This document shows positions 1 through 28,944 of a stretch of DNA of 64,000 nucleotides, in pieces (positions within the stretch are counted from its first letter, which is position 1; every line of letters starts with the position of its first letter). The DNA is from Streptomyces rubradiris (lineage in GTDB: Bacteria; Actinomycetota; Actinomycetes; Streptomycetales; Streptomycetaceae). The notes under the pieces are model-generated. The model was not told the origin of the DNA. It saw only the letters and a program-made list of their open reading frames with translations, and did not search any database. The position numbers were made by a program, and so were the translations under genes. Location: NCBI RefSeq assembly GCF_016860525.1, contig NZ_BNEA01000015.1:1178001-1242000 (forward strand). Direction: 5' to 3'.

Positions 1-66
1 GAACACGCCTGGAGTTACGGCCGCAGCCTGCGCTCGCTCACCCGCCGCGAGACCGCACGTGGCTGA
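1..66 (+). CDS. 3' end of an unidentified cluster gene (partial)
   Basis: Frame 1 is open from the window edge to TGA at 64-66 and encodes 21 residues rich in Arg and Ser, ending TARG. The stop overlaps the GTG start of the next gene (59) by 8 bases, the close packing seen throughout this cluster. Too little is visible to name it; the start lies to the left of the window. Confidence 0.45.
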   Translation, partial: EHAWSYGRSLRSLTRRETARG

Positions 67-1159
67 CGCCCAGATCACCCTCACCTACAGCCGGAACATC
101 GGCGTCGTCGCCATCGCCACCGGCAAGCACTACGAATCCGCGGAGAAGGTACTGGGCGCTACCGGGTTCCGCCGGGGTGAGGCCGGGACGTACCACGTGT
201 CCGACGCGGACGAGGCAGCGGCCAAAAAAGCCCTGGCCCGCCTGGTCCAGCGTGCCCAGGCGTCCGGAATCGAGGTGACGGCCAGCAGCCGGCGGTTCAT
301 CGGGGACGCCGCCCGCGACATCGCCCGCCTCCTGCCCGGCCAGTGGAACACGCAGGTCGAGATCTACGCCCACCCGGTGTGGCAGGAAGACCTCCTCCCC
401 TATCTGTGGGACAACGGCGACCTAGCCCACGCCGTGCGGACTGCCCGGATCCCCTACGCCGCCACCCTCACCAACCGGGCCACCGCCACCATCCTGCTGC
501 TGGCCGAACGCCCCGGTCGGCTCGGCTACCTGGTCGGTGCCCTCGCTCCCGCGGCGTTCGGCGAGGTGGACGGCGATCCGCACGCCCCGCGCAGCATCAC
601 CGTGGGGCCGTTCCCCGGCCCCGCCGCACAGGCGATCACCGAGCGGTATCTGCCCGCCTACGAACAGGCCGTCCACGAGCGTCGCATCACGATGGTGGCC
701 GAGGCCCTCGGCATCATCCAGTCGGAACTGGATCCCCGGCGCGAACCGCGTACCGCCACGGGCGCCGAGGGTGCCCTGCCAGAACAGTCCAGGCAGTGCG
801 CCCCGGCAGGCGACGCCTTCCTGGACCGCGCGTGGCGCGAGTTCCTCACCGTCGTGGACCACGCCCCGGTGCTGCTGGACCGGTGCCGTCCTGCGGCCAG
901 TGCGTGGCCGCAGGACGCCGAGGCCCTCGACCAGCTCGCCGCCGCGCTCCTCGCCGCTGAACAGGTACGCGATGACCTGACCCGAGGCGTCCCGCTGTCC
1001 CGCGCCGACCACCACCAGCGCACCTGGCCGGTGATCGCGACCTGGCTCACCCACAGCGACAGCTTCCTGCGCCAGGCCCGCGCCGCGGCACCAAGCCCGC
1101 CTCCCGCGCCCGCACTCCCCGCACCCCCGCCCCGCGCCCTGCCCGCACACCGCCTTTGA
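59..1159 (+). CDS. Cluster protein, N-terminal AGF/AGY-type domain plus second shared domain
   Basis: A 366-residue protein of unknown function starting at GTG 59. Residues about 1-75 form a small domain (AEKVLGATGF, then TYHV, then a helix and GIEV) that recurs in the genes at 1179, 1625, 9445, 10181, 10936, 18822 and 27562. Residues about 110-210 (ATILLLAERPGRLGYLVGAL, later ERYLPAYEQAV) resemble the N-terminal half of the protein at 10181, where the two domains occur in the opposite order. Residues about 270-330 are helical. The tail is Pro/Ala-rich and ends AHRL. No signal peptide or membrane segment. Its position suggests a part in the same apparatus as the DUF317 and ATPase genes; this is inference. 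Confidence 0.75.
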   Translation: MADAQITLTYSRNIGVVAIATGKHYESAEKVLGATGFRRGEAGTYHVSDADEAAAKKALARLVQRAQASGIEVTASSRRFIGDAARDIARLLPGQWNTQVEIYAHPVWQEDLLPYLWDNGDLAHAVRTARIPYAATLTNRATATILLLAERPGRLGYLVGALAPAAFGEVDGDPHAPRSITVGPFPGPAAQAITERYLPAYEQAVHERRITMVAEALGIIQSELDPRREPRTATGAEGALPEQSRQCAPAGDAFLDRAWREFLTVVDHAPVLLDRCRPAASAWPQDAEALDQLAAALLAAEQVRDDLTRGVPLSRADHHQRTWPVIATWLTHSDSFLRQARAAAPSPPPAPALPAPPPRALPAHRL

Positions 1160-1178
1160 CCGTAGGAAGGCCCCCTTC

Positions 1179-1628
1179 TTGGACCCTGGCACGCACTTCG
1201 CCTTCGGCACCCACCCCGAGCACGGCTTCGTCGCCGCGTTCACCACGACCATGCCCGCCCACCTGGGCCACTGGTTCCTCACCCGCGAGCAGTTCGAGCC
1301 CGTCCCCGGCCATCCCACGCTGTTCCGGCTCACCGAGCCCGACCGTGACGGTGCGCGCCGCGCCCGCCACGCCGTCAACGACCTGCGGGCCCTGGGCTAC
1401 ACGGTGGACGCCGACCTCCGCCTCGACCCGCACCCACCGTCGCGGTCGGCACGCCCGGCCCGGCCCCACGCTCTGCCGGAGCGGCGTAACCGGCTCGCCC
1501 AGGCGGCGGCCGTGCGCTCCCCGCAGCACCGGGCCACGCCGCCCACCACCACACCCGCCACACGGCCGATTCCGCCGAAGCCCGCCTACGCCCCGACCGT
1601 GCACCTGCACACGGGACGGTCGCGATGA
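1179..1628 (+). CDS. Small cluster protein with AGF/AGY-type domain
   Basis: 149 residues, starting at TTG 1179 behind GTAGGAAGG (1162-1170); no ATG or GTG lies as well placed. Residues about 1-85 follow the cluster's small-domain pattern: a beta-rich start, then ALGYTVDADLRLDP at the end. The remaining 60 residues are a disordered Pro/Thr/Arg-rich tail ending GRSR. The stop overlaps the next ATG (ATGA at 1625-1628). Function unknown. Confidence 0.65.
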   Translation: MDPGTHFAFGTHPEHGFVAAFTTTMPAHLGHWFLTREQFEPVPGHPTLFRLTEPDRDGARRARHAVNDLRALGYTVDADLRLDPHPPSRSARPARPHALPERRNRLAQAAAVRSPQHRATPPTTTPATRPIPPKPAYAPTVHLHTGRSR

Positions 1629-1966
1629 CACCCGACGACGAGACGATCCGCATCACCCGCGGGCAGGGCGGCGAGGTCGAAGTCAGCGGAAGGATCGACG
1701 CGGTGGCCAAGGAGCTGCTGCTCCGGGCCGGTTTCCTCTTCCTGCCGGCCCTGCGCGGCCGGGTCTGGGTCCGGCTGCCGTTCGACCTCGGCCGCGACTG
1801 GGAGAACAAGCACGCGACCTGGGCAGCGGACATGCTCTCCACCGCCCGCTACCACGTGCACCTCGACCCCGACCTGCGCTACACCCCACCCGACGAACCG
1901 GCCCCGCCCGCACGACCGCCGGCCATGACCGCCCAAACACCACCCAGCAGGCCACAGCGCCGCTGA
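1625..1966 (+). CDS. Small cluster protein with AGF/AGY-type domain
   Basis: 113 residues, ATG overlapping the previous stop. It is essentially one copy of the recurring domain: a beta-strand start (IRITRGQGGEVEV), AKELLLRAGFLFLP, a WVRLPF strand, a helix, and YHVHLDPDLRY. The tail is Pro-rich and ends SRPQRR. It is shorter than its relatives because it lacks an added helical domain. No enzyme motif is visible. Confidence 0.65.
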   Translation: MTPDDETIRITRGQGGEVEVSGRIDAVAKELLLRAGFLFLPALRGRVWVRLPFDLGRDWENKHATWAADMLSTARYHVHLDPDLRYTPPDEPAPPARPPAMTAQTPPSRPQRR

Positions 1967-1989
1967 AACCCTTCCTCCGGGAGAACCTG

Positions 1990-3162
1990 ATCCCTGACAC
2001 CACCCCGCCCAGCGCGGCACAACTCGCCGACCGGGCGCGGAGTTACCGGCTGCGGATGACGGTCATCGACCGCGAGACCGAGACCGCCCTCGACGCCAGC
2101 CGGGACCGCTACGGCCGCACCGTCCACCACGACGCCGCCACCGCCGCCCGGACCCGCCGAACCCAGGCCGCCCTCGCCACCTACGCCATCCATCTCGCCG
2201 AACACGGCCAGCAGCTGCTCACCGCCGCCCGCAGCGGCCTCGACCACCAGCCCCCGGCCCCGCACACCGAAGCCTGGCGTGACCTACTGGCCGCCCTCGC
2301 CACCTCCCACACCGAGATCACCCGCACCCTGACCCACCCAGCCGGACCGGGGTCAACCGAGCAACGTCAACAGCATGCTGCCGTGTGGCCGCACCTGGCC
2401 TTCTGGGCCGATTACGGCTCCATCGCGGCCGACCTCGCCGACCAGCACCATCACCCCGGCCCCGAACTGTCCGCCGAGGACAAGCACCGGTGGACCGACC
2501 AGGCCCGTGCCGCACGACGGCGGGCCGAGCTGGAGCCGATCGAGTCCTGGTACGCAGCCGACGGCCGCCTCATCACCCTCGCCTACCTGGTCCAGGACGA
2601 CACCTCCACCGTCATCGCCCTGGCCGGAGACCTGGATGCCGTATCAGGCTGGGAGGTCATCGGGCACTACGACGACGAACTGGCCGCCGGCCGGGCCCTG
2701 CCCCGCGCGGTCCCGCCCGGAGTCCTGCGCCCGGACGCCACCTCCCGCTTCAACCGGCCCGAGCCCACGCCCGAGCGCCCTGTACAGGAGCTGCTCCAGG
2801 AGGTGGTCGAGGCCCGCACCGCCAGCGAGGTCTCCGAGGCCCTGCTCACCGCCGCGCAGCCCGGCTACGAAGCCGGCCCCCTGGTCCGGCTGGAGCACCT
2901 CCTCGACACCGCGGCCCGCTTCTCCTACGCCCTGGACACCGTCCGCGGCCAGCAGATCGGCGCCCGGCTCGCCGCCCTCGGCCGGCAACTCGCCTTCCTC
3001 ACCCAGGAAGTCCACGACGCGGCAGAAGACCTCGGTGCAACCGTCGGCATCCTGCCCCCACACCGCACCCCGGCACCACCCCGCACACGGTCCCGCCCCG
3101 CAGTGAGCACCACCCCTCCCACACCACCGGCCCGCAGCACGGCCACCACCCGCCGCGCGTAG
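1990..3162 (+). CDS. Large cluster protein, helical; probable ATC start
   Basis: The frame is open from 1156, but the first 800 bases overlap two better genes. Translation most likely begins at ATC 1990, five bases after GGGAGA (1979-1984); the first in-frame ATG is 2056, with no clear ribosome binding site. About 390 residues: a helical N-terminal third, a middle beta-rich part (ESWYAADGRLITLAYLVQDD) resembling the second domain of the proteins at 59 and 10181, and a helical bundle (about residues 260-360) like those of 9445 and 10936. The tail is Pro/Thr-rich and ends TTRRA. Function unknown. Confidence 0.65.
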   Translation: MPDTTPPSAAQLADRARSYRLRMTVIDRETETALDASRDRYGRTVHHDAATAARTRRTQAALATYAIHLAEHGQQLLTAARSGLDHQPPAPHTEAWRDLLAALATSHTEITRTLTHPAGPGSTEQRQQHAAVWPHLAFWADYGSIAADLADQHHHPGPELSAEDKHRWTDQARAARRRAELEPIESWYAADGRLITLAYLVQDDTSTVIALAGDLDAVSGWEVIGHYDDELAAGRALPRAVPPGVLRPDATSRFNRPEPTPERPVQELLQEVVEARTASEVSEALLTAAQPGYEAGPLVRLEHLLDTAARFSYALDTVRGQQIGARLAALGRQLAFLTQEVHDAAEDLGATVGILPPHRTPAPPRTRSRPAVSTTPPTPPARSTATTRRA

Positions 3163-3230: not shown

Positions 3231-3728
3231 ATGGCTGTCCGCACGAAGTGGACCGTCGACCATGCCTGCGGCCACGAAGTCGTCCACGACCTGTCCGACC
3301 GCGCCGCCGACCGACGGGCCGGGTTCGCCCGCTGGCTCGCCGCACGGGACTGCACCGACTGCTGGAAGGCCACCCGCAGCACCGACACCGCCTCCAAGGA
3401 GGAGTGGCTCGCCGCCAAGCGCGCCGAGGAACAGCGGGCCGCCGCCGAGTGGGCCGCCCAGTTCGACATACCCCCGCTGGAAGGCCCCGAACGCGCCCTG
3501 GCCTGGGGCGAACGCTCCCGCCACCAGCTCATGACCGCAGCCCACACCGCCCTCGTCATCGAAGGCACCTGGGACGACGCCGACTGGGCGGAACTGGAAG
3601 AAAAGGCCCGCACCATCACCCGCGCCGGATGGTGGATCGACCAGCGCGACTCCGACGGCACCGACCTGCCCGAACTCCTCGACGCCGCCACCGAGCAGGA
3701 CCGCGGTACGGAGAACCCGTACCGCTAG
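3231..3728 (+). CDS. Zinc-ribbon-like hypothetical protein
   Basis: 165 residues from ATG 3231, with AAGGAGA about 8 bases upstream. The N-terminus has CGHEV near residue 13 and a CTDC pair near residue 43, a possible zinc-binding knuckle. The rest is charged and helical (KEEWLAAKRAEEQRAAAEW), followed by a Trp-rich segment. It lacks the Pro/Ala tail of its neighbours and is the last gene before a 470-base gap, so it may close the first transcription unit. Similar small proteins are common in Streptomyces accessory DNA; the function is unknown. Confidence 0.7.
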   Translation: MAVRTKWTVDHACGHEVVHDLSDRAADRRAGFARWLAARDCTDCWKATRSTDTASKEEWLAAKRAEEQRAAAEWAAQFDIPPLEGPERALAWGERSRHQLMTAAHTALVIEGTWDDADWAELEEKARTITRAGWWIDQRDSDGTDLPELLDAATEQDRGTENPYR

Positions 3729-4428: not shown

Positions 4429-4522
4429 AAAAATTCGGCCATGGGTTGCGGGAGCACCATCGGACAGTCCACCCTATGGTTAACATGGACGGCAAAACGC
4501 CGTGCCGCTAAGGGAGTTGGAC

Positions 4523-8030: not shown

Positions 8031-8471
8031 TTGCTCCCACCGCCCTGGACCCCGCCGTCCACCCCAGCCTTCGCGCCGACACCCGACCCGCTCACGCCCG
8101 CCCGGGACATCACCCACGAGCACTTCGAGGCCGGTGACCAGATCATGGTCATCAAGGGCGTCGCCGGCGGTCGGCTATGCGGGGACGCGATGCGGGTTGT
8201 CGCCCCGTCCTGGCACACCCCGACCGACGAGGACGGGTGGCGGCTGCGCGATCCCAACGGCGGTGCCCAGACGTTCATCACCGCCCACCCCCGCTACCTG
8301 GTGCACCTCTCGCGGCGCTGCCCGGACTGCCTGATCTTCCAGCGCGCCATGGAGGACCACCTGCTGCCGAGGTACGCCGGCCATGCCGACGCCATCATCG
8401 ACTGCGGCTGGTACACCACCACGGCCCTGGGCCAGCTCGTCCACATCGCCGACGCCCGCAGCGGCCGGTGA
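8031..8471 (+). CDS. Cluster protein with CxxC and HxR motifs, unknown function
   Basis: 146 residues from TTG 8031, 6 bases after GGAAGGA (8018-8024); the frame also has GTG 8016. A beta-rich first half (DQIMVIKGVAGGRLCGDAMR, then GWRLRDPNGGAQTFITAHPR) is followed by RRCPDC (about residue 100) and DCGWYTTTALGQLVHIADARSGR. The Cys pair could bind metal. It ends SGR like many neighbours and opens the second half of the gene cluster. Confidence 0.6.
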   Translation: MLPPPWTPPSTPAFAPTPDPLTPARDITHEHFEAGDQIMVIKGVAGGRLCGDAMRVVAPSWHTPTDEDGWRLRDPNGGAQTFITAHPRYLVHLSRRCPDCLIFQRAMEDHLLPRYAGHADAIIDCGWYTTTALGQLVHIADARSGR

Positions 8472-8578
8472 CGCTGGCCGCCCGCCGTCCCGGCCACGCC
8501 CCTGCCGTGGCGGACGTACGAACCCTGGCCGCCACCGAGCAGTACCCCCGTGCCTTCACCGGAGCCGTACCAGCATGA
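8468..8578 (+). CDS. Possible 36-residue coupled small protein
   Basis: GTG 8468 overlaps the previous stop (GTGA) and the TGA at 8576-8578 overlaps the next ATG (8575), so this frame exactly fills the gap between two cluster genes. It encodes 36 residues rich in Ala, Arg and Thr (LAARRPGHAPAVADVRTLAA). The coupled architecture is the only evidence; it may merely be a leader that carries ribosomes to the next gene. Confidence 0.3.
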   Translation: MTLAARRPGHAPAVADVRTLAATEQYPRAFTGAVPA

Positions 8579-9429
8579 TTTCCCGTCTCAACGAACCCTC
8601 CGGCACCCCGCACGGGCCGCTCGGCGAAGCCCTGGGGCGCGTGGTGAGCGCGGAGGAGGTGCTGACGAAGGACACGGTGGTCGCCTACTGGCCGGCCCTG
8701 GACGCCTACCTCCTGGACGGCGAAACCTCGGCGTGGACGGCCGCCCAGTGGGCCGAGCACCTCGAAGACCCGCTGCTGGAGCACCCCTTCGCCGCCGGTC
8801 CCGCCGGTGACCGGAGGGCCGTCGTCCACCTCTCTGTCCGGCTCCACCCTGATGACCGCCGGCCGAACGGTGCGGAGTGGTCCGAGATCGCCCACCGTTT
8901 CGCTCGCGCGGCAGGCTTCGAGAACCCCGGGGACACGGCCGGCTGCCGGTGGATCGCCATCCAGGCGCAGCCCGGGCGCCTGGATGTGATCGCCAACCTC
9001 ATCCGGCTGGATGGCGCCTGGCAGAATCTGCCCACCGGTCTGCTGAAACGGCTGGCGGCGGAGGCCCGGCGCATCGAGCAGGACCTGCGCTTGATCGCTC
9101 CTGCCGCTGTACCCGGCCGCCGGTGCCTGACCGGGTCAGTCCCGGATGCGTCCTCACAGCTGGCCGGTGTTCTCGCTCAGCTCACCGACGAGCGGTCCGG
9201 TCCGCTGGCCGCCGTGCGCGGTCTCATCGAGCGCACCGCGCACCGGGCAGCGCTCCAGCCCGGCACCGGCCCCGACATCGGGCACCGCCTGGAGCTGATC
9301 GCCCACCGCCTGCACCGCATCCAGCAGGATCTCGACGCCACCGCCACCCGTCTGACCGCCCGCCCCGGCCGGGTGCCGGCAGCCCCCGTTGTCCCCGCTG
9401 CCCGTGCCTCGGGCGGGCACTCACCGTAG
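8575..9429 (+). CDS. Relaxase/mobilisation-nuclease-like protein lacking the metal-binding histidines
   Basis: 284 residues from ATG 8575. Residues about 1-165 follow the layout of Streptomyces mobilisation relaxases: an MISRL start, WAEHLEDP, then VVHLSVRLHPDDRR, EWSEIAHRFARAAG, DTAGCRWIAIQ and AEARRIEQDLRL. Where the family normally has the histidine motif (DDHIHIVATLVREDG, from memory), this protein reads PGRLDVIANLIRLDG, so the nickase centre appears lost. Residues 180-260 are a helical bundle shared with other cluster proteins. The tail is Pro/Ala-rich. Inference: a catalytically dead relaxase descendant, perhaps a DNA-binding or structural subunit working with the TraG-like ATPase at 16652. 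Confidence 0.6.
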   Translation: MISRLNEPSGTPHGPLGEALGRVVSAEEVLTKDTVVAYWPALDAYLLDGETSAWTAAQWAEHLEDPLLEHPFAAGPAGDRRAVVHLSVRLHPDDRRPNGAEWSEIAHRFARAAGFENPGDTAGCRWIAIQAQPGRLDVIANLIRLDGAWQNLPTGLLKRLAAEARRIEQDLRLIAPAAVPGRRCLTGSVPDASSQLAGVLAQLTDERSGPLAAVRGLIERTAHRAALQPGTGPDIGHRLELIAHRLHRIQQDLDATATRLTARPGRVPAAPVVPAARASGGHSP

Positions 9430-12984: not shown

Positions 12985-13092
12985 GTGCCCGACCTCACCC
13001 CGGATGACATCCGCACCGTCGCCAAGACCCTGTCCCGTCTGCCCGAGTACCTGTGCCAGCCGAGTGAGCCGGGGTGCGGCTCGTGCCGGTGA
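12985..13092 (+). CDS. 35-residue small protein
   Basis: GTG 12985, 4 bases after CTGGAG, to TGA 13092, which overlaps the GTG of the next gene. It begins VPDLTPDDIRTVAKTLSRLP and ends with CQPSEPGCGSCR. The three Cys residues near the end could bind metal. Coupled position and a visible ribosome binding site support it; otherwise unknown. Confidence 0.4.
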   Translation: MPDLTPDDIRTVAKTLSRLPEYLCQPSEPGCGSCR

Positions 13093-20277: not shown

Positions 20278-21020
20278 CCACGTTCGCGCCCGAGGGCCTC
20301 GTGCTCGTCTCCCCCCGGTACCTGGCCGGGTCCGGAACCCGGATCGCCGACGCACTCGGCCCCCTGATCCACCTGTTCGACTGGTCCTACGACCACGACC
20401 CGGCCAGCGGGCACATCCGCCTCGACAGTCCCTGCGGCAGTGCCTTCCTCGACTTCGAACCGACCCGGTTCGACGGGTCGTGGTGGACCATCCGCCACCA
20501 CGACCCGTCCTGGACGGCCCGGTTCTCCCGGCAGACCCCCATCGAGGCCATCGCCGCCGTCGCCCAGGCCCTGCCCCAGCTCCTCGGCGACGCCCGGCAC
20601 GCCGACCGCATCCCCCTCACCACCAGCGCCCTGGACCAGACCGCCGCCCTCAACGGCTGGACCACCACCCGGACCGAGACCACCACGGTCTACGCCTCCC
20701 CCGACGGGCACTGCGTCCTGACCTACGAGCCGGGCGGTGAGCTGCCCTGGCGGTTCACGCACTCGCTGTACGACGGGTTCGACACGGAATGGACCGCGAC
20801 CCTCAGCCGCGACGCCCCCAAGGAGCTGGCCCGGCAATTCTTCGCCCACCTGGCCGACCCGGCACCGGTCGAACGGCTCTTCAAGGACCTGCCCTACCTC
20901 GTCCAACACGGCTCGGGTGCGCTGATCACCCCCCTGGCCGCAGCCGCCGTCAGCCCTCACGTCCACCACGCCGCCGCGCAGGCAACCCGCACGTCTGCCG
21001 GCCGACCCCAGAAACGATGA
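20274..21020 (+). CDS. DUF317 protein 5 (two repeats)
   Basis: 248 residues, ATG overlapping the previous stop (ATGA). First repeat: SPRYLAGSGTRIADALGPLI, FDWSYDHDPASGHIRLDSPC, FEPTRFDGSWWTIRHHD, FSRQTPIEAIAAVAQALPQL. Second: TAALNGWTTTRTETTTVYAS, GGELPWRFTHSLYD, LSRDAPKELARQFFAHLADP. It ends SAGRPQKR. More diverged than the four copies upstream of the ATPase and separated from them by it. Confidence 0.83.
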   Translation: MTTFAPEGLVLVSPRYLAGSGTRIADALGPLIHLFDWSYDHDPASGHIRLDSPCGSAFLDFEPTRFDGSWWTIRHHDPSWTARFSRQTPIEAIAAVAQALPQLLGDARHADRIPLTTSALDQTAALNGWTTTRTETTTVYASPDGHCVLTYEPGGELPWRFTHSLYDGFDTEWTATLSRDAPKELARQFFAHLADPAPVERLFKDLPYLVQHGSGALITPLAAAAVSPHVHHAAAQATRTSAGRPQKR

Positions 21021-21823
21021 CCTTGCCCGACCTTCCTCTGCCCGAGCGCCTTCTGCTCCTGGGTGCCGACTTCATCCGGCACCGCGACGTCCTCACCCGC
21101 ATCAACTCGGCACACACCGCCTACGCGACCGGGGCGGCAGCCGAGCACATCCCGGTCACCCAGGCCCTGGCTCGGGGCGCGCTCGATGCGCGCGACGCCA
21201 TCGGTACGGCGCCAGGGCTCCACCACTCACCGGACGTCGAACGCGCCATCGTCCGGATGACGCAGCTCGCCACGCTGGCCGTGGTCGCCGCCGACCACCT
21301 CATCGACGCGGTCGACCTGCTGTCCCACACCGTCTCCCACCACCCCGGGCAGGGACCGGCAACGGCTCCGCCCGCCGCGCAGACGGCGCAGGCCGCCAGA
21401 CACTCCCGCCTGGCCGAACAGCTGACCTCGCTCGGCGCCGAGGACTGCCTGGCCGCCGCCGGTCTCCTCGCCCGCGAACTGCGCCAACAGCACCCCGGCG
21501 CCTTCCGGCCGCCGCCGGCCCTGTCACCCACGCAGCGGGCGGCGCTCGAAGCCGTCGCCGCCGGCCGGGTCACCCTCGACCAGCACGGGGTCCTGGTCGA
21601 GCGTGGCACCGGGCGAATGGCCATCACCACGATCCGTTCCCTGGAAAGCCGTGGCCTGGTGCAACGGGAGCCCTGCGCGCTGTGGATGCACGACGAGCGG
21701 CCCCACCTCACCCCGGAGGGCTGCCAGGCCCTGGCCGCCACCCTGGGCCAGCCTCGTTCCGCCCCGCCCGCGGCCATCCCTCCCACGGCCAAGGCCGCCG
21801 TGACCCGGTCGGCAACCCGCTAA
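21017..21823 (+). CDS. Cluster protein with C-terminal winged-helix-like domain
   Basis: 268 residues from ATG 21017 (ATGA overlap). A helical N-terminal region (PERLLLLGADFIRHRDVLTR, AADHLIDAVDLLSHTVSHH, LGAEDCLAAAGLLARELRQQ) is followed by a winged-helix-like domain at about 175-245: LSPTQRAALEAVAAGRVTLD, TTIRSLESRGLVQRE, PHLTPEGCQALAATL. The tail ends TRSATR. The helix-turn-helix pattern is clearer here than in 19441. Confidence 0.68.
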   Translation: MTLPDLPLPERLLLLGADFIRHRDVLTRINSAHTAYATGAAAEHIPVTQALARGALDARDAIGTAPGLHHSPDVERAIVRMTQLATLAVVAADHLIDAVDLLSHTVSHHPGQGPATAPPAAQTAQAARHSRLAEQLTSLGAEDCLAAAGLLARELRQQHPGAFRPPPALSPTQRAALEAVAAGRVTLDQHGVLVERGTGRMAITTIRSLESRGLVQREPCALWMHDERPHLTPEGCQALAATLGQPRSAPPAAIPPTAKAAVTRSATR

Positions 21824-21847
21824 GCCCTCCCGAGGAACCCCGCCTTT

Positions 21848-22354
21848 TTGCACACCTACAAGCCGACCGACCTGGACGACATGACGATGGCGGAAGCGAT
21901 CGACGCCGTGATCGCCGACCTGCTCCACCACCCGGTCGCCGCTTCGCCCCACGGCGTGTTCACCGTGATGCGGCACATCGACCTGCTCTGTCACCTGACA
22001 GCCCGAGCGGTCGGCGATGCCCACTTCGGGCTCGCCTGCGAGCACGCCGATCCCGCGGACCAGGAACGCGTCGAGCCGCTCGGCCGGGCAGCCGCTCACC
22101 TCGGCCGCGCCACCGCCCACTACACCCTGGCGCTGGCCCCCGTCATCGCCCTGAGCAAGTCCGATGCCCGAAGCGCCAAACAGCTCGACGTCTTCGACGC
22201 GCTGAGCCAGCTCACCAAGCAGGTCCATGACGCCCTGCTCGCTCTGTCGGACGCCCGTACCTGTCTGACCACGCCCCTGCCGCCCGGCGGGCAAGCCGCG
22301 CCGGCAGCACCCCCGTCCGTTCCGGCCCCACCCGCCGCCAAGCCCCGCCACTGA
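21848..22354 (+). CDS. Helical cluster protein
   Basis: 168 residues from TTG 21848, with GAGGA about 13 bases upstream, a long spacing. All-helical: TMAEAIDAVIADLLHHPVAA, FTVMRHIDLLCHLTARAVGD, LGRATAHYTLALAPVIALSK, LTKQVHDALLALSDAR. The His and Cys residues show no fixed metal pattern. The tail is Pro/Ala-rich and ends KPRH. The stop overlaps the next ATG (TGATG). Function unknown. Confidence 0.6.
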   Translation: MHTYKPTDLDDMTMAEAIDAVIADLLHHPVAASPHGVFTVMRHIDLLCHLTARAVGDAHFGLACEHADPADQERVEPLGRAAAHLGRATAHYTLALAPVIALSKSDARSAKQLDVFDALSQLTKQVHDALLALSDARTCLTTPLPPGGQAAPAAPPSVPAPPAAKPRH

Positions 22355-23190
22355 TGACGACACCGCCCGACCCCGACACCCCGCTGTTCGACGTGGCCGC
22401 ACCCGCCGCGCTGACGCCCGTGGAACGGCTGCTGGCACTCGCCGACCTCTACACCCAGCACAACGACGCGATCGACCTGCTGTTCGCCGGCCGCGCCCTA
22501 CTCCCCGAGGATGCCTACGTGTCCTCCTCCCACCGTCTGGAGCGGGAGACCCTTGCCGGCATCAAGACGGTACGACAGCAGTCCCTGCCGGCCGTCGAGC
22601 CGGTCACCAGCGCCGTCGTCCGGCTGAAGCAGACCGCCTACCTGGCCGGTGGCGCCACGCGCTACCTCACCGCCGCCCGGCAAGCCCGGCCCACCGACGA
22701 CGCCGAACCGACCCACCCTGATCCGCGCCGCGGGTTCGGCCAGTACCTGCGGCTGGCCCGTGAACTGACCACCCTCGCACCAGCGACCATCGTCGCCTCC
22801 GCCGCACAGATCGCCACCAGGCTGCCCCAGCGGGCACGCAGCACCACCACGGTCCCCGGCCTGGATACGGCCCAGCGGGGTGCTCTCCTCGAAGTCGCCC
22901 AGGGCCACGTTGCCGTCACCGATCAATACGGTCAGCGCGCTTACGGCCACAGCGTGCCGGTGCCCGTCGACGTCCTGCGCCAACTGGAAGCCCAGGGCCT
23001 GGTGGAGCGCCAGTCCACGACCGTGCCCCCGCTTTTCCCCGGCGGCTCCTCACGCGACCGCGTACGCCTGACCACCCTCGGCACCTGCGTCCTGAGCACG
23101 GTCATCGACACCCCCCACATCCCCAGCCCACCCGCGGCCAGCCCGGTCCCCGCCCCGGCCACGGTCAGCACCGCCCGCGCCCGCCGCTGA
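22354..23190 (+). CDS. Cluster protein with C-terminal winged-helix-like domain
   Basis: 278 residues from ATG 22354. The N-terminus (VERLLALADLYTQHNDAIDL) matches the start of the protein at 21017. A helical middle is followed by a winged-helix-like region (about 170-250): LDTAQRGALLEVAQGHVAVT, VDVLRQLEAQGLVERQ, VRLTTLGTCVLSTV. The tail is Pro/Ala-rich and ends STARARR. Third member of the local family 19441/21017/22354, suggesting duplication in place. Confidence 0.68.
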   Translation: MTTPPDPDTPLFDVAAPAALTPVERLLALADLYTQHNDAIDLLFAGRALLPEDAYVSSSHRLERETLAGIKTVRQQSLPAVEPVTSAVVRLKQTAYLAGGATRYLTAARQARPTDDAEPTHPDPRRGFGQYLRLARELTTLAPATIVASAAQIATRLPQRARSTTTVPGLDTAQRGALLEVAQGHVAVTDQYGQRAYGHSVPVPVDVLRQLEAQGLVERQSTTVPPLFPGGSSRDRVRLTTLGTCVLSTVIDTPHIPSPPAASPVPAPATVSTARARR

Positions 23191-23230: not shown

Positions 23231-24157
23231 ATTCCCGCTTCGCCCACGCTCATCTGCATCTCGCTCGGTGCCGGCGTCCAGTCCAGCACCCTGCTCGCCC
23301 TGTCCGCCAACGGCGTTCTCCCGAAGGCCGATTACGCCATCTTCGCCGACACTGGCTGGGAGCCCCGCGCCGTCTACCAGCACCTGGACCGGCTGGAGAA
23401 GGAGATTGCCGCTCCCGCCGGGATACCCGTCCTGCGGGTCTCCTCCGGCAACATCCGCCGTGACGCCCTCGACCCGAACCACCGCTTCGCGTCCATGCCC
23501 CTGTACGTCCTCAACCAGGACGGCAGGCCGGGCATGACCCGGCGCCAGTGCACCGGGGAATACAAGATAAAACCGATAAAACGACAAGTCCGTGAACTGC
23601 TCGGCTACCCCCACCCGCAGCGCGTCCCGAAGGACGTCTTCGTCGAGCAGTGGGTGGGCATCTCCACCGACGAGTTCCACCGCGCCAAGGACGCCGACGT
23701 CCGCTACATGCGCAACCGCCACCCCCTGATCGACCTGGGCTGGTCGCGCAGCGACTGCCTGCGCTACCTCACCTCGCTCGGCCTCGCCGACACCCCGAAG
23801 TCCAGTTGCCTGGGCTGCCCGTACCACGGCAACGCGCAGTGGCGGCACATCCGGGAAAACCCCGAGGAGTGGCGTGACGTCGTGGAGTTCGACGCGGCGA
23901 TCCGGGCGGGCAACGCCCGCGCGAACGCCTCCGGCACCCGGCTGCTCGGGCAGGCGTTCCTCCACCGCTCCCGAGTCCCGCTCAGCGAGGCGCCGATCGA
24001 CCACGTCACGGCGGCCGAGTGGGCCGCCCGCCAGCAGGAGATCGATGACCGCACCGCGGTGGTGGAGGACCTGGAGAACGGGGTGGTGGACGGCTGCTCC
24101 CCGTGGGCCTGCCGGTCAGGCGACCCCGTGCGGAGCGATTTCGACCTCACCGCGTGA
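23231..24157 (+). CDS. PP-loop (PAPS reductase-like) ATP-pyrophosphatase family enzyme; probable ATT start
   Basis: 308 residues. ATT 23231 lies 6 bases after AAGGAAG (23218-23224); the next in-frame ATG would remove the nucleotide-binding loop. ISLGAGVQSSTLLALSANG (about 11-29) is the PP-loop, then YAIFADTGWEPRAVYQHLD. RRQCTGEYKIKPIKRQVREL, SSCLGCPYHGN and CSPWAC supply Cys residues typical of PAPS-reductase/DndC-like proteins, which activate a substrate with ATP and often carry an iron-sulfur site. Relatives occur in phages and mobile DNA. The neighbouring DNA methyltransferase hints at a nucleic acid substrate, which is not shown. No Arg tail. Confidence 0.82.
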   Translation: MPASPTLICISLGAGVQSSTLLALSANGVLPKADYAIFADTGWEPRAVYQHLDRLEKEIAAPAGIPVLRVSSGNIRRDALDPNHRFASMPLYVLNQDGRPGMTRRQCTGEYKIKPIKRQVRELLGYPHPQRVPKDVFVEQWVGISTDEFHRAKDADVRYMRNRHPLIDLGWSRSDCLRYLTSLGLADTPKSSCLGCPYHGNAQWRHIRENPEEWRDVVEFDAAIRAGNARANASGTRLLGQAFLHRSRVPLSEAPIDHVTAAEWAARQQEIDDRTAVVEDLENGVVDGCSPWACRSGDPVRSDFDLTA

Positions 24158-24785: not shown

Positions 24786-24786
24786 C

Positions 24787-25041
24787 ATGCCCGCCCTTCA
24801 ATGGCCGACCCCGCGTTCAGCTCCGGACACGGCGGCTGAACGCCGGTGCGCCGGGCCACCTCGGCGACACCCTGACCCGCCGAGACCCGCGGGCGCCTGC
24901 GGGGCCGAAGTTCTCGACCCTCCTCTGTCAGCTGCTTCTCAGATGAAAGGCCAGCCCCTGCCTCAATCCGACATATCCCGCCCAGTCCATACAACCGTGC
25001 AGTTGCGGCACATCCGGAGCGACTTCGGGGTGACCGTGTGA
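24787..25041 (+). CDS. 84-residue hypothetical protein
   Basis: ATG 24787 directly after the previous stop, to TGA 25041, which overlaps the GTG of the methyltransferase. Low-complexity, Pro/Arg-rich first half (RRHPDPPRPAGACGAEV), then PVHTTVQLRHIRSDFGVTV. No domain recognised. The fit between two genes favours translation, but the composition leaves room for doubt. Confidence 0.4.
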   Translation: MPALQWPTPRSAPDTAAERRCAGPPRRHPDPPRPAGACGAEVLDPPLSAASQMKGQPLPQSDISRPVHTTVQLRHIRSDFGVTV

Positions 25042-26318
25042 GGCGGATCATCCTTGATTTGTTCGCCGGCTGTGGTGGTTGGAGCCACGCCCTCAGCGTT
25101 CTCGGGGCCCGCGACATCGGCCTGGAATGGGACACCTGGGCCTGCGAAACCCGCGCCGCAGCCGGGCAGTTGACCCTCCAGACCGATGTCGCCCGCTACC
25201 CCGCGTGGATCTTCTCCGGGCGTGTCCTGGGGCTGATCGCCTCCCCGCCGTGCCAGGCGTGGTCGATGGCCGGCAAGCGCCTGGGTCTGGTCGACCAGCC
25301 CCTCGTCCACCAGGCCGTCGCCGACCTCGCCGCCGGTCGTGACACCCGCGACCAGCTCCTGGCCGCGTGCGCCGACCCGCGCTCCCTGCTCGCCGCCGAG
25401 CCCATGCGCTACCTGCACGCCCTGAACGCGGTGGGCGAGCCGGAGTGGGTGGCCATGGAGGAGGTCCCCGACGTCCTGCCCCTGTGGCGGCAGTACGCCG
25501 CCATCCTGCGCACCTGGGGGTTCTCCGTGTGGACCGGGATCCTCAACGCCGCCGACTACGGCGTCCCCCAGACCCGTCGCCGCGCGTTCCTGCTCGCCTC
25601 CCGGGTGCGTACCGCCGCACCCCCGCCGCCCACGCACGCCCAGGTCGCCGAGCCGGAGTCGCTGTTCGGGCCCGGCCGCGCCCGGTGGGTGTCGATGGCC
25701 GAGGCCCTGGGGTGGGGCCGGACCGACGGCCCGGTGCCCACCGTGTGTGCCGGCGGGGGCCCGGGAGGCGGCCCCGAGCCCTTCCCCTCCGGCTCCCGCA
25801 AGACCCTCGCCGATGCCCGCGACCGGGGAACCTGGACTCCCCACCCGGGCGGAGCCGTCCTGCGATCCCGTCGTGAAGGGCCGGCCTGGGCCGCCCGGCC
25901 CGGCTCCGACCTGCCCGCCGACCGTCCAGCGCCGACGTTCACCGCCGAAGCACACCGCTGGGTCTGGTCCCTGCGCAGCAACAACCAGACCAACGCCACC
26001 GTCCGGTCGATCCGGGAGCCGGCCGGGACGCTGTTCTTCGGGCACCGCGCGAACGAGTGCACCTGGGTCGCCGAACCCGCCGCCCCCAGCCCCGGCGACA
26101 CCGCGGGCAAGACCATGGTGGTACCCGAGCCGATCAAGATCACCGCCCGGGAGGCGGGCATCCTGCAGTCCTTCCCGGCCGACTACCCCTGGCAGGGCAA
26201 CAAGGGCCAGCAGTTCTCCCAGATCGGCAACGCCGTCCCGCCCCGGCTCGCAGCCCACCTCCTCGCCCCGCACCTGAACGTCCCCTTCCGCCCCGACGAC
26301 TTCACGCTCGCAGCCTGA
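25038..26318 (+). CDS. DNA (cytosine-5) methyltransferase
   Basis: 426 residues from GTG 25038. Motif I DLFAGCGGWS (7-16), catalytic motif IV SPPCQAWS (about 68-75), motif VI reading EEVPDVLP instead of the common ENV (about 142), motif VIII QTRRRAFLLAS (about 177) and motif X SQIGNAVPPRLAAHL near the end. It transfers a methyl group from SAM to cytosine C5. No restriction enzyme gene is adjacent, so it is likely an orphan, protecting the element or modifying DNA with the PP-loop enzyme encoded 0.9 kb upstream. The stop overlaps the next ATG. The Glu-Glu-Val variant should be noted but is compatible with activity. Confidence 0.93.
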   Translation: MRRIILDLFAGCGGWSHALSVLGARDIGLEWDTWACETRAAAGQLTLQTDVARYPAWIFSGRVLGLIASPPCQAWSMAGKRLGLVDQPLVHQAVADLAAGRDTRDQLLAACADPRSLLAAEPMRYLHALNAVGEPEWVAMEEVPDVLPLWRQYAAILRTWGFSVWTGILNAADYGVPQTRRRAFLLASRVRTAAPPPPTHAQVAEPESLFGPGRARWVSMAEALGWGRTDGPVPTVCAGGGPGGGPEPFPSGSRKTLADARDRGTWTPHPGGAVLRSRREGPAWAARPGSDLPADRPAPTFTAEAHRWVWSLRSNNQTNATVRSIREPAGTLFFGHRANECTWVAEPAAPSPGDTAGKTMVVPEPIKITAREAGILQSFPADYPWQGNKGQQFSQIGNAVPPRLAAHLLAPHLNVPFRPDDFTLAA

Positions 26319-27496
26319 TGCCCCGCACCACCCACCCGCACAAGGACGGCCTCGGCGCCAGCGCACCGTCGCCGCCGGGCTACTTCGCCGAGCAGGCCCT
26401 GCTCGGCGCCCTCCTGTCCGAACCGCACCGCCTGCCCGACGTGACCGGCATCAGCCCCGACGCGTTCACCACCCCGGCGCACGCCGCGGTGTTCGCCGCG
26501 ATCCAAGCCCTGCCGACCCCCGCCCCCGTCGAGACCGCCGATCACGCCGCCGCGCTCGCCGCCCTGCGTGCACGGCCTGCCGCCCCCGGCCCGGGCAAGC
26601 ACGCCGAGCACATTGCCTGGCTGGGCAAGGTGCTCACCGTCGCCCGCGGGCAGGCCCGCGGGCTGACCGCCGCCCACCTGCACACCCTCATCAGCGCATG
26701 CCCCACCCCCCGGCACGCGCCCGCGTACACGCGGATCATCCAGGCCGAGCACGCCCGCCGCCGCCTGCACAAGGCCGCCCAGCGCCTGACGCACACCGCG
26801 CGGGACACCTCGCTCCCCCACCCCGTGCCGAGCACCCTGGCCGAAGCCGACGCCCTCGCCGGTGTCGTGGACGCCATCGCCGCCGCGTTCCCGCCGCACT
26901 CCGGCTCCCTGCCCCGCACCCCCCTACCCCCGCAGGAACCTCCACCCGATGGCGAAGAGGCCACCCAGGAGGAGCGGCTGCTGCTCGCCACGGCCACCGC
27001 ACGGCCAGCCGAGACGGAGCAGATGCGCTGGCTGACGGAAGAGGACTTCACCCTCCCCCTGCACGCCGGACTCTGGCGATGCCTGACCACACTGGTGCGC
27101 CAGCGCGCCCCCGTCGATCCCGTAACCGTCCTCTGGCAGGCCCAGCAGCGCGGTGTCCTGAACGGTGTCGATGACCCACGGGAGGTGCTCGGTTTCCTCA
27201 CCCGGCCGGACGTGTCCGCGCCCTACCTCGGCGAGCGGATCCTGCGCCGGTCCGTCCTCGCCACCGCCCACCACGCCGGCCGCCGCATCGAAGCCTTCAG
27301 CGACGACCCGGCCAACAGCCCCTACCAGCTCGTGGTCGGCAGCCGCCGCGCCCTCGCCGAACTGACGGCCATCCGCACCCGCTGGCAGCAAGCCACCTCC
27401 CCGGCAACCGGCCCCCCGCCCCGCACGACCCGGGCGGTCCGGCGCACCGGCCCCGCTCCCACCACGGCAGCCTCCGCCGGCCGCCTCACACGCTGA
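26318..27496 (+). CDS. Tandem DnaB N-terminal-like domain protein without helicase domain
   Basis: 392 residues from ATG 26318 (TGATG overlap). Residues about 20-115 resemble the DnaB N-terminal domain (AEQALLGALLSEPHRLPDVT, FTTPAHAAVFAAIQAL). Residues about 205-320 are a second copy (ATQEERLLLATATARPAETE, LTEEDFTLPLHAGLWRCLTT, LTRPDVSAPYLGERIL). No RecA-like ATPase domain follows: no Walker motifs are seen. In DnaB this domain forms the collar and binds primase, so this protein may imitate or capture replisome parts. The tail ends AGRLTR. Confidence 0.72.
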   Translation: MPRTTHPHKDGLGASAPSPPGYFAEQALLGALLSEPHRLPDVTGISPDAFTTPAHAAVFAAIQALPTPAPVETADHAAALAALRARPAAPGPGKHAEHIAWLGKVLTVARGQARGLTAAHLHTLISACPTPRHAPAYTRIIQAEHARRRLHKAAQRLTHTARDTSLPHPVPSTLAEADALAGVVDAIAAAFPPHSGSLPRTPLPPQEPPPDGEEATQEERLLLATATARPAETEQMRWLTEEDFTLPLHAGLWRCLTTLVRQRAPVDPVTVLWQAQQRGVLNGVDDPREVLGFLTRPDVSAPYLGERILRRSVLATAHHAGRRIEAFSDDPANSPYQLVVGSRRALAELTAIRTRWQQATSPATGPPPRTTRAVRRTGPAPTTAASAGRLTR

Positions 27497-27561
27497 CCCC
27501 GACCATGCCGGTGGACGGGCCCCGACCGGGTCCGGCCACCGGCAGAAAGAGCACATCCCGA

Positions 27562-28944
27562 GTGACCGAACCTGCCCTCGACGCCCACGTCCGCCTCGAC
27601 ACCCACCCCACGCACTCCAGCGCCGTGACCGCGACCGTCACGGGCACCAAAGCTGATCGTGCCCTGGCCATCCTCCTGGCCGACGGCTGGGAGAACGCCG
27701 CCGAGAACACGCTCGTCCTGGTCCGTATCGACCACGAGGAGCCCTACTGGGCCAACGAAACCGCCGGCAAACTCCACGCGGCCGGGATCCCCACCCAGAT
27801 CAGCGACCGGCTCCGCAAGGCCATCCACGAGGAGTGGACCTGGGCCGACTACCCCATGCCCTGGCTCACCCGGTCCGAGATCCGGGAGGTCTCCGACCAG
27901 GCCCAGAAGCTCTACGACGACATCCGGCACAGGCGGCTCCTCATCCACGCCCACGCCCACGACGGCCACACCACCGTCGCGGTCGGCACCTACCTCAATA
28001 CAGGCAAGAGCGTCTACCTCCACGGAGAGAACCACCTGCGGCAGATCGCCGACACCTTCGACTCCCCCGCCCAGGCCCTCACCATGTTCGAACGCGTCCA
28101 CGGCGACAGCATGCGCCCCGGCCCCGCGCCCCTGACCGACACCGAGCGCCAGACCGCCCAAGCCCGCACCATCCTCGGCACACCGGACACCGGCACGGAA
28201 TCGCCTGTGGCCCAGCCCGAGCCCGCCCCCGAACCAGAAGTCGTGCCGGCGTACGCCGCCGACCCCGGCGACCACGACGCCCTACTGGAGGAGTTCCTCG
28301 CCGCACACGGCGAGTGGCAAAAGTGGAGCACCTGGTCCGACGACACCACCCACGCCATCCACGAGTCCCAGACCCTGCGCATCGAACGCGTCCACCAGGC
28401 AGACCCCCGGGAGACGTCCTGGACCGTGGCCGCGTACGAAACGCCGGTCTCCGAACGCATGTGGCACCTCACCGCCACCGACACCGCGCCCGCCCCCGTG
28501 CTGAAGGCCCTGCTGGACCAGCTGGACGACACAGACACGTGGGAAACAGTCGCTGGCAGCCCGATCACGGACAAGACCGTCACCGAAGCCACGCGCCCCC
28601 TCACTGATGCCGGGTGGAAGCACACGGTGGACGGACGATGGATCCGCTGGGAAACCCCCCAGAAAGACGCCGGCGTGCAATTCGATGCCTTCGCCGCCCA
28701 GAACCCCGGCCACTACCTCCCCACCTGGACCCTGTGGGCCGGACAGAACCCCGACCGCCCCACCTGGGCCATCCACGCCTCCACCTACACCCCCGCCACC
28801 CTGCTCTCCCACCTCACCGGAGAACTCGCCGAGGGAATCGGAATACGTCAGCCCCGTCCACCGCAGGCGAAAAAGGCACACCACTACGCTCCCGCTACGC
28901 CCTCCGGAGCACCTCAGCAGCCACCAGCCCATCTACGGCGTTGA
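27562..28944 (+). CDS. AGF/AGY-type domain fused to DUF317-like C-terminus
   Basis: About 460 residues from GTG 27562; ATG 27505 is in frame but has no ribosome binding site. Residues about 5-85 match the small cluster domain (ALAILLADGWENAAENTLVL, AAGIPTQI). The middle (YDDIRHRRLLIHAHAHDGHT) is unique. Residues about 330-435 look like diverged DUF317 repeats: LTDAGWKHTVDGRWIRWETP, then PTWTLWAGQNPDRPTWAIHA and YTPATLLSHLTGELAEG. The tail ends QQPPAHLRR. Last gene of the cluster, joining its two main domain types in one chain. Confidence 0.68.
   Translation: MTEPALDAHVRLDTHPTHSSAVTATVTGTKADRALAILLADGWENAAENTLVLVRIDHEEPYWANETAGKLHAAGIPTQISDRLRKAIHEEWTWADYPMPWLTRSEIREVSDQAQKLYDDIRHRRLLIHAHAHDGHTTVAVGTYLNTGKSVYLHGENHLRQIADTFDSPAQALTMFERVHGDSMRPGPAPLTDTERQTAQARTILGTPDTGTESPVAQPEPAPEPEVVPAYAADPGDHDALLEEFLAAHGEWQKWSTWSDDTTHAIHESQTLRIERVHQADPRETSWTVAAYETPVSERMWHLTATDTAPAPVLKALLDQLDDTDTWETVAGSPITDKTVTEATRPLTDAGWKHTVDGRWIRWETPQKDAGVQFDAFAAQNPGHYLPTWTLWAGQNPDRPTWAIHASTYTPATLLSHLTGELAEGIGIRQPRPPQAKKAHHYAPATPSGAPQQPPAHLRR

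What the first reader, a model, noticed from the sequence alone, without database searches (positions are those of the whole stretch)
59..28944. A gene cluster in which most non-enzyme proteins share a Pro/Ala-rich tail ending in arginine
Of about 30 plus-strand genes, around 20 end in a low-complexity Pro/Ala/Thr tail closing with R, RR, RRR or SR within the last few residues. Examples: 1625 PQRR, 9445 GGPRR, 10181 AARSR, 12164 FRARR, 13089 and 14438 PAARR, 15276 MARR, 19441 GRRR, 22354 ARARR, 24204 AAKSR, 26318 GRLTR, 27562 HLRR. The clear enzymes (ATPase 16652, XF1762 18439, PP-loop 23231, methyltransferase 25038) lack it. Substrates of type IV coupling proteins are recruited by positively charged C-terminal signals, so the tails could be a shared recruitment signal read by the TraG-like ATPase. 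This may be an undescribed multi-substrate transfer system.
Basis: partly seen in the sequence, partly recalled or inferred. Interest (0 to 1): 0.85.

Follow-up and report, generated by a model that had tools for sequence, protein, structure and literature searches.

The report
Arginine-ended tails on transfer-element proteins
In a Streptomyces mobile element that encodes a DNA- and protein-exporting machine, some twenty small proteins of several unrelated families end in a floppy tail whose last residue is usually arginine, and most of one class of proteins that pilot DNA through related machines end the same way, so the tail is probably a shipping label; this is not yet tested at the bench.

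Summary
20 of 30 plus-strand genes called in the stretch end in Arg; the cluster continues upstream on both strands. Pro/Ala/Ser/Thr tails occur in 24 of 44 cluster proteins against 18 of 655 sampled elsewhere in the genome; 18 of 24 against 2 of 18 end in Arg/Lys. The terminal Arg is kept while the linker drifts (30 of 30 fetched loci of the 10181 family) and survives a control for translational coupling. The surroundings are type IV secretion genes: split VirB4 (SCO6880 family), TrbL, NlpC/P60 and a VirD4 coupling protein. Main support came from outside: MOBP relaxases, textbook clients of coupling proteins, mostly end the same way (106 of 109, 119 of 120, 89 of 120; 11 of 13 clusters at 60% identity). 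Against: MOBF relaxases mostly do not (1 of 5), coupling proteins of tail-less relatives themselves end in Arg in 5 of 8 cases, and nothing tests binding. The element's own relaxase-like protein lacks the catalytic motif's histidines. A second C-terminal motif, like the host's ssrA tag, marks the coupling protein and enzymes. Best reading: a recruitment signal for the coupling protein.

The parts
59..1159 (+). tailed protein, ends ..PAHRL (tail present, terminal R not kept)
1179..1628 (+). tailed protein, ends GRSR; overlaps next gene
1625..1966 (+). tailed protein, ends PQRR
2056..3162 (+). tailed protein, ends TTRRA
3231..3728 (+). conserved protein without PAST tail but ending NPYR; 10 of 12 members (window copy included) end in R/K
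8145..8471 (+). conserved protein ending RSGR without PAST tail; 10 of 14 members end in R/K
8383..9429 (+). relaxase-like protein in which the histidines of the MOBP motif VRH..DHIH are replaced in every orthologue compared; ends GGHSP
   Evidence: hhalign 98.3%, E 1.1e-14
9445..10140 (+). tailed protein, ends GGPRR; 8 of 9 members end in R/K
10181..10939 (+). tailed protein, ends R-x-R; all 30 fetched loci end R-x-R
11784..12167 (+). tailed protein, ends RRHR; 7 of 7 members end in R (only 1 of the 7 passes the tail definition)
12164..12964 (+). SPDY (DUF317) protein, tail ends RARR; 12 of 12 members
13074..13898 (+). SPDY protein, tail ends AARR; 9 of 9 members
14017..14370 (+). small conserved protein ending DER, no PAST tail; 7 of 8 members end in R/K
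14438..15253 (+). SPDY protein, tail ends AARR; 4 of 4 members
15845..16618 (+). SPDY protein, tail ends HTR; 7 of 7 members
16652..18442 (+). VirD4/TraG coupling protein (T4CP), ends ADYGQAA (ssrA-like class)
   Evidence: (TraG-D_C 1.2e-34)
18439..18921 (+). XF1762 family protein, no tail, ends PTVC
18822..19421 (+). tailed protein, ends RRSQ
19591..20277 (+). tailed protein, ends GRRR
20274..21020 (+). SPDY protein, tail ends QKR
21017..21823 (+). tailed protein, ends SATR
21848..22354 (+). tailed protein, ends KPRH
22354..23190 (+). tailed protein, ends RARR
23495..24157 (+). PP-loop/PAPS-reductase-like protein (weak match; frame open upstream), ends SDFDLTA (ssrA-like class)
25038..26318 (+). 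cytosine-5 DNA methyltransferase, ends DDFTLAA (ssrA-like class)
26318..27496 (+). DnaB N-terminal-domain protein with tail ending LTR; 8 of 8 members end in R
27562..28944 (+). SPDY protein, tail ends HLRR

Best explanation
The tails are a C-terminal recruitment signal for the element's VirD4-type coupling protein (T4CP). A 20-30 residue disordered Pro/Ala/Ser/Thr linker holds out a free C-terminal Arg, often as RR or R-x-R, which the T4CP recognises before feeding the protein into the split-VirB4 type IV channel. The same ending on MOBP relaxases would be how related systems pick up the relaxase-DNA complex; in this clade some twenty accessory proteins in the window (SPDY/DUF317 proteins, a DnaB N-domain protein, others of unknown fold) have the same label and would be sent to the recipient with or instead of DNA. 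Shown: the tails, their enrichment, conservation of the terminal Arg, the T4SS genes, the same terminus on most MOBP relaxases. Inferred: disorder, recognition by the T4CP, export, purpose in the recipient.
For: Enrichment over 655 sampled background genes and over shuffles. In tailed proteins R/K is 0.75 and 0.62 at -1/-2 but 0.00-0.17 from -5 to -19 (background 0.10-0.18 there); a second, weaker rise lies at -24 to -26 (0.21-0.33). Terminal Arg kept in 12/12, 9/9, 7/7, 7/7, 8/8 and 14/14 members of six families (window copy included) with linker identity of 34-54%, and in 30 of 30 fetched loci of the 10181 family, the closest of the matches found in 70 genomes. Not a start-site artefact: with the next gene >15 nt away, 14/19 cluster tails and 54/69 orthologous-cluster tails end in R against 2/13 background tails. 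T4SS set nearby: NlpC/P60, DUF6112, TrbL, SCO6880, VirB4 ATPase, T4CP. MOBP relaxases: 106/109, 119/120, 89/120; clusters of all 360 at 60% identity 11/13, at 70% 17/22, at 80% 41/48, against 103/655 background genes. 15 of the 19 relaxases read in 30 Streptomyces loci. 13 of 15 actinobacterial plasmid relaxases read singly and 7 of 8 same-strand genes after them, against 4 of 14 MobC proteins. Five of the six readable relaxases 15-23 kb from a 60-72% T4CP end PRR. SPDY proteins outside the element in the same genome lack the tail: 0/3. By eye, 68 of 70 genomes with a 10181 homologue also have a T4CP match, against 73 of the other 225. Positively charged C-terminal signals are known for A. tumefaciens VirB/D4 (PMC10025392, passages).
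Against: No binding or export data. MOBF relaxases mostly do not follow: 1 of 5 actinobacterial ones, and a further Thermobifida relaxase-domain protein of unchecked class ends in P. T4CPs of tail-less relatives, not expected to be cargo, end in R in 5 of 8, and so does the DUF6238 protein of this element's T4SS operon, although the seven apparatus proteins I counted do not. The 53-56% T4CP family has no tailed cluster: tails 7/51, one ending in R/K. 31 of 120 relaxases of the third search do not end in R (17 in E or D, 1 in K). The end is not specific to Actinobacteria: a Klebsiella IncQ2 frame ends in R, a cyanobacterial MOBP relaxase does not; of four non-actinobacterial TraA/MobF proteins one ends in R and one in K. 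The element's relaxase-like protein ends in P, 2 of its 8 members in R/K. A tailed regulator of the HxlR family is an odd cargo. In G012 tailed genes also lie far from its T4CP. In the 10181 family codon -1 is CGA and codon -3 AGG in 20 of 30 each, so start overlap may add to the R-x-R there (inference).
Confidence: 0.5

Rival explanations
1. Protective cap: the proteins merely have disordered linkers, and a charged terminal Arg shields such exposed ends from C-terminal proteases (ClpXP, Tsp) or from tmRNA tagging. No reader protein is involved.
For: R/K is mildly enriched at -1 in the genome sample (0.19). Other proteins of the same element carry the opposite, ssrA-like ends. Terminal R on T4CPs of tail-less relatives fits a cap better than a cargo label.
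Against: Other tails of this kind in the genome sample do not show it: 2/18; with a looser definition 20/101, about the base rate (119/655), against 18/27 in the cluster. It does not explain why R-x-R with a free middle residue is kept.
Confidence: 0.2
2. The tail is a degron or adaptor tag read by a host AAA+ protease, so that the element's proteins are short-lived until needed.
For: Long disordered ends are what AAA+ unfoldases engage (general knowledge). Another set of element proteins has ends like the host tmRNA tag ANTKRDSFALAA.
Against: I recall no protease motif ending in Arg; relaxases with the same end act in transfer. No half-life data.
Confidence: 0.1
3. Basic tails bind DNA: the proteins form an element-specific nucleoid coat or are DNA-binding regulators.
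For: One tailed protein is an HxlR-family regulator (L003:2195-3040, E 4.5e-19); others have weak regulator matches; relaxases also bind DNA.
Against: Basic residues cluster in the last four positions; from -5 to -19 R/K is 0.00-0.17 against 0.10-0.18 in the background, unlike Lys-rich DNA-binding tails.
Confidence: 0.08
4. Artefact of base composition, translational coupling or gene calling: a C-rich coding strand gives P/A/T/R, and SD or ATGA overlaps give Arg codons at gene ends.
For: Coding-strand GC skew is about -0.1 to -0.23 over most of the cluster. In the 10181 family codon -3 is often AGG and codon -1 CGA.
Against: The effect is as strong without coupling; terminal codons of uncoupled tails are CGC in 35 of 54, with synonyms; many ends on a related plasmid are the same in NCBI annotation; Arg is position-specific under shuffling. 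Tail DNA of different genes shares only matches of 13-22 bases at the E-value used (59 tails).
Confidence: 0.05

Closest known systems
VirB/D4 C-terminal translocation signal of Agrobacterium (VirF, VirE2, VirD2) and of the relaxase MobA
   Same: C-terminal, positively charged, carried both by protein effectors and by a relaxase (PMC10025392, passages).
   Different: There several Arg spread over about 20 residues (consensus recalled, not looked up); here one to four basic residues at the very end after a Pro/Ala/Ser/Thr linker.
T4SS-based ICEs and conjugative plasmids of Actinobacteria (PMC3218068, PMC9513070; passages)
   Same: VirD4-type T4CP, VirB4-type ATPase, integrase; insertion in tRNA genes.
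   Different: The T4CP lies about 20 kb from VirB4 behind a block of tailed genes, whereas in four plasmid relatives without that block it directly follows the VirB4 ATPase gene; in the window's element the only relaxase-like protein found lacks the histidines of the motif.
X-T4SS effectors with XVIPCD domain (Xanthomonas)
   Same: Many substrates of one T4SS share a C-terminal module read by VirD4.
   Different: XVIPCD is a domain of about 120 residues (PMC10025392, passage); here no shared domain was found, only tail and terminal residue, and no toxin or immunity domain above cut-off in the Pfam scans made (one sub-threshold ParE_toxin match, E 0.044, in L003:5914-6399).
cmd/SLP2 and SCO6878-6881 clusters of S. 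coelicolor (PMC2782261, passages)
   Same: SCO6880-family protein; SLP2.19-23 are required for transfer of a linear plasmid.
   Different: No tailed cluster is described in the passages seen; null mutants of SCO6878 or SCO6881 showed no sporulation or pigment phenotype.

Membership tests
Type IV secretion element of Actinobacteria | VirD4-type coupling protein | tested here: met
   16652-18442, TraG-D_C E 1.2e-34; the only TraG-D_C match in the genome
Type IV secretion element of Actinobacteria | VirB4 ATPase | tested here: met
   split: SCO6880 family 430 bits (L003:12043-13524) and a VirB4-like C-terminal half, below the curated cut-off (L003:14633-16150)
Type IV secretion element of Actinobacteria | VirB6/TrbL and cell-wall hydrolase | tested here: met
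   TrbL_4 just over its cut-off and NlpC/P60; pilin-like DUF6112 E 2e-7
Conjugative ICE | functional relaxase | tested here: inconclusive
   MOBP: not met, the only PF03432 match in the genome (E <= 1) is 8383-9429, below cut-off, motif histidines replaced. Other relaxase families were sought only through Pfam scans of most of the element's genes
Conjugative ICE | integrase and flanking att repeats | tested here: inconclusive
   integrase 48588-49937 over a tRNA-Pro gene; no tRNA-Pro repeat found in the 104 kb searched
C-terminal T4CP recruitment signal (VirB/D4 type) | positively charged extreme C-terminus shared by unrelated proteins of one T4SS element | tested here: met
C-terminal T4CP recruitment signal (VirB/D4 type) | same signal on the relaxase | tested here: met
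   for most MOBP relatives; not for most MOBF nor for the element's own relaxase-like protein
C-terminal T4CP recruitment signal (VirB/D4 type) | tail-dependent export through the T4SS | not testable with these tools
   needs a bench assay
ssrA-like ClpX degron (second C-terminal class) | C-terminus like the host tmRNA tag | tested here: met
   tag ends DSFALAA; DDFTLAA, SDFDLTA, ADYGQAA, GGFGLAS, DDMVLTA; 5/44 vs 0/471 with a loose expression chosen after seeing them
ssrA-like ClpX degron (second C-terminal class) | ClpXP-dependent turnover | not testable with these tools
   needs a bench assay

The most novel reading that the evidence does not exclude
In this Streptomyces clade a conjugation machine has given up its MOBP relaxase and become a multi-protein delivery system: a free C-terminal arginine on a disordered tail is the shipping label for some twenty proteins, while an ssrA-mimicking end marks the coupling protein and the modification enzymes for destruction or retention in the donor. 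Two C-terminal codes would thus sort one element's proteome.
Probability: 0.2. Interest if true: 0.9.

Novelty: new variant of a known kind. Interest (0 to 1): 0.7.

Why it matters
How T4SSs of Actinobacteria choose substrates appears little described: in the main text of the 2025 review searched here neither 'translocation signal' nor 'arginine' occurs (PMC12857230, word search). If right, the last residues of a protein help to predict export, MOBP relaxases become the positive control, and a large set of unstudied Streptomyces proteins (SPDY/DUF317 and others) becomes a set of candidates delivered between mycelia. It can be tested by removing one or two residues.

Tried and rejected
Shine-Dalgarno or ATGA-overlap origin of terminal Arg: rejected as the general cause, kept as a possible contributor in the 10181 family. 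Shared tail DNA or recent gene conversion: only 13-22 base matches between tails. SPDY domain as the carrier of the tail: rejected, three SPDY proteins elsewhere in the genome end without it, as do those of G006, G007 and G013 that could be read outside a T4CP cluster, while G012 has tailed SPDY genes at 6.88 and 8.39 Mb, far from its T4CP at 7.65 Mb. Extension of the rule to MOBF relaxases: negative, 1 of 5. Tailed loci in genomes without the own-type T4CP (G055, G197, G278): the 10181 homologue keeps R, but the loci look decayed, so this decides nothing. The S. angustmyceticus relaxase first looked like a counter-example (ends ADH); its 97% relative P0121 and 118 others of the 120 listed end in R, so I read it as an aberrant end in a family that follows the rule. 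Left attachment site: not found. A genome-contig scan for non-actinobacterial controls with a cyanobacterial MOBP relaxase found nothing, and so did one for more MOBF relaxases, so controls outside Actinobacteria are few. A first reading of the Klebsiella relaxase used a wrong frame and was replaced. Structure prediction was not used.

Full report
What is there. The window is part of a 9.05-Mb genome that I take for a Streptomyces from its named relatives. The stretch 59-28944 belongs to a longer block that starts at least 25 kb upstream (loci L002 and L003). Upstream on the plus strand lie an NlpC/P60 hydrolase, a DUF6112 pilin-like protein, a TrbL/VirB6 protein, a SCO6880-family protein (N-terminal half of a split VirB4), DUF6238 and the VirB4 ATPase half. 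In the window lie six SPDY (DUF317) proteins, a VirD4/TraG coupling protein, T4CP, an XF1762 protein, a PP-loop-like protein and a cytosine methyltransferase and a DnaB N-domain protein. The minus strand upstream has further tailed genes, one of them an HxlR-family regulator.

The observation. With a codon-model gene finder trained on the same genome, 20 of 30 plus-strand genes up to 29 kb end in Arg. Against 655 genes sampled from the genome, compositional tails are 24/44 vs 18/655, and tails ending in R/K are 18/24 vs 2/18. An earlier count with 265 background genes and 56 cluster genes, weaker gene calls included, gave 35/56 vs 8/265, and 27/35 vs 1/8 ending in R. The tail definition was fixed after the tails had been seen. 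The basic residues cluster at the end: 0.75 at -1, 0.62 at -2, 0.25 at -3 and -4, 0.00-0.17 from -5 to -19, with a second rise (0.21-0.33) at -24 to -26; acidic residues are nearly absent. Shuffling the last 25 residues never reaches the observed count (33 vs maximum 19).

Orthologues. A T4CP homologue is present in 141 of 295 genomes of the genus. Twenty 20-kb orthologous regions were read. In the 13 regions whose T4CP is 77-91% identical, 130 of 246 genes have the tail and 92 of these end in R/K; in four regions at 62-72%, 22 of 55 and 13; in three at 53-56%, 7 of 51 and 1. In the 62-72% group R/K is 0.59, 0.00, 0.41 and 0.32 at -1 to -4, an R-x-R pattern. Among families with at least four members (window copy included) the terminal residue is often fixed while the linker drifts: 10181 14/14, 12164 12/12, 13074 9/9, 11784 7/7, 15845 7/7, 26318 8/8, with linker identities of 34-54%; others are looser (9445 8/9, 15528 6/9, 18822 3/5, 59 2/4, 8575 2/8). 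For the 10181 family the 30 loci fetched, the closest of the matches in 70 of 295 genomes, all end R-x-R with S, A, T, G or Y in the middle. By eye, 68 of these 70 genomes also have a T4CP match, against 73 of the other 225; since both genes usually sit on one element this is weak evidence.

Controls. Translational coupling was the most serious mundane cause. Genes with the next start more than 15 nt away show the effect undiminished: 14/19 cluster tails, 54/69 tails of orthologous clusters, 2/13 background tails; terminal codons in the orthologous clusters are CGC 35, CGA 8, CGG 7, CGT 3, AGG 1. In the 10181 family the codon at -3 is AGG and at -1 CGA in 20 of 30 each, so start overlap may help there. 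SPDY proteins elsewhere in the genome have no such tail (0/3). Seven apparatus proteins of the element do not end in R, but DUF6238, encoded among them, ends in VR, and T4CPs of tail-less relatives end in R in 5 of 8 cases (L069-L071, L198-L201, L205). NCBI gene models on a related plasmid show the same kind of ends.

The outside test. If the tail is a T4CP signal, relaxases, the established T4CP clients, should have it. A plasmid relative, S. reticuli pIV (T4CP 44% identical), has a MOBP relaxase ending PRRAR (Pfam). Of its homologues, 106 of the 109 that are 580-600 residues long end in R, with R/K 0.97 at -1, 0.00 at -2, 0.97 at -3 and 0.87 at -4 (the best 120 of 1401 were listed, 11 of other lengths left out). 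A second MOBP family, taken from a plasmid that carries a 64% T4CP, ends mostly RPPRR-like, 119 of 120 listed ending in R. A third search with a Rhodococcus relaxase gave 89 of 120 listed. Taken together, 11 of 13 clusters at 60% identity, 17 of 22 at 70% and 41 of 48 at 80% end in R, against 103 of 655 background genes. Actinobacterial plasmid relaxases read one by one end in R in 13 of 15 cases, the next gene on the same strand in 7 of 8, MobC of the same operons in 4 of 14. In 30 Streptomyces relaxase loci the catalytic motif was found in 19, of which 15 end in R. Eight relaxases lie 13-23 kb from a 60-72% T4CP; six could be read and five of these end PRR, the sixth HLA. In a class-wide sample of 118 genomes five had a PF03432 match; four of the five frames end in R. 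Results against: of five actinobacterial MOBF relaxases one ends in R, and a Thermobifida relaxase-domain protein ends in P; 31 of 120 in the third search; outside Actinobacteria one of two MOBP proteins ends in R, and of four TraA/MobF proteins one ends in R and one in K, so the feature is neither universal among relaxases nor confined to Actinobacteria.

The relaxase of this element. The one PF03432-like protein of the genome (8383-9429) scores below cut-off. Profile comparison aligns it to MOBP relaxases (98.3%, E 1.1e-14), but the histidines of the motif VRH..DHIH are replaced in it and in every orthologue compared. Only 2 of 8 members end in R/K. Among the T4CPs listed at 76-91% identity, I found only two, in G014 and G253, with a PF03432 match on the same contig within 100 kb (compared by eye). 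So the own-type elements lack an evident MOBP relaxase in cis. DNA transfer may rely on a helper, on a relaxase of another family (not searched genome-wide), or may no longer be the task.

Second C-terminal class. Several proteins that lack the Arg end share another end: T4CP ADYGQAA (orthologues DDFGLAS, SDFGSAA), methyltransferase DDFTLAA, PP-loop-like protein SDFDLTA (orthologues DDFGLAT), DUF4913 protein GGFGLAS, N4/N6 methyltransferase QDDMVLTA. The XF1762 protein has neither. The host tmRNA tag is ANTKRDSFALAA. The expression used found it in 5/44 cluster and 0/471 background proteins, defined after seeing it. T4CPs of eight tail-less relatives lack it. I read it as a likely ClpXP degron; turnover was not tested.

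Mechanism and verdict. Best supported: the T4CP recognises a free C-terminal Arg on a disordered lead and threads the protein into the T4SS. Recognition and export are inferred. Known: T4SS-type ICEs in Actinobacteria (PMC3218068, PMC9513070, passages), positively charged C-terminal T4SS signals (PMC10025392, passages), a chromosomal SCO6878-6881 cluster (PMC2782261, passages). Not found in print: searches for DUF317 with Streptomyces, SPDY domain with Streptomyces, and relaxase with C-terminal arginine and coupling protein returned no papers in the held open library; a further search timed out. Most subscription papers are not in that library.

Noticed in passing
window 16652-18442, 23495-24157, 25038-26318; L003 6396-7004 and 7151-7906 (-): Unrelated element proteins share an ssrA-like C-terminus (such as DDFTLAA), close to the end of the host tmRNA tag, DSFALAA.
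   Followed up: partly
window 8383-9429: Relaxase-like protein conserved across orthologous clusters with the histidines of the catalytic motif replaced in every copy compared.
   Followed up: yes
L069-L071, L198-L201, L205 (T4CP genes): Coupling proteins of relatives without the tailed cluster end in R in 5 of 8 cases.
   Followed up: no
window 48588-49937 and 49835-49909: Tyrosine integrase gene whose 3' end runs over a tRNA-Pro gene on the other strand; a matching left repeat was not found.
   Followed up: partly
window 39768-46244: A single open frame of about 2,150 codons, not examined.
   Followed up: no
window 29147-30595 (-): IS110-family transposase just right of the tailed cluster.
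   Followed up: no
window 4502-6231: DUF5753/HTH regulator and a Methyltransf_19 gene in a stretch of lower G+C (0.60-0.63) that interrupts the cluster.
   Followed up: no
L002 17057-19952 (-): ATP-grasp ligase, MFS transporter and HAD hydrolase genes beside tailed SPDY genes; a BLAST relative of the ATP-grasp protein lies in L065.
   Followed up: no
G000:C15:1135488-1136009, C15:3842944-3843456, C7:5822-6334: Three SPDY (DUF317) loci outside the element whose proteins end LLRAPAI, without tail.
   Followed up: yes
window 10181-10939 orthologues: The codon at -1 is CGA and the codon at -3 is AGG in 20 of 30 loci each, which could double as a start overlap and a Shine-Dalgarno for the next gene.
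   Followed up: partly
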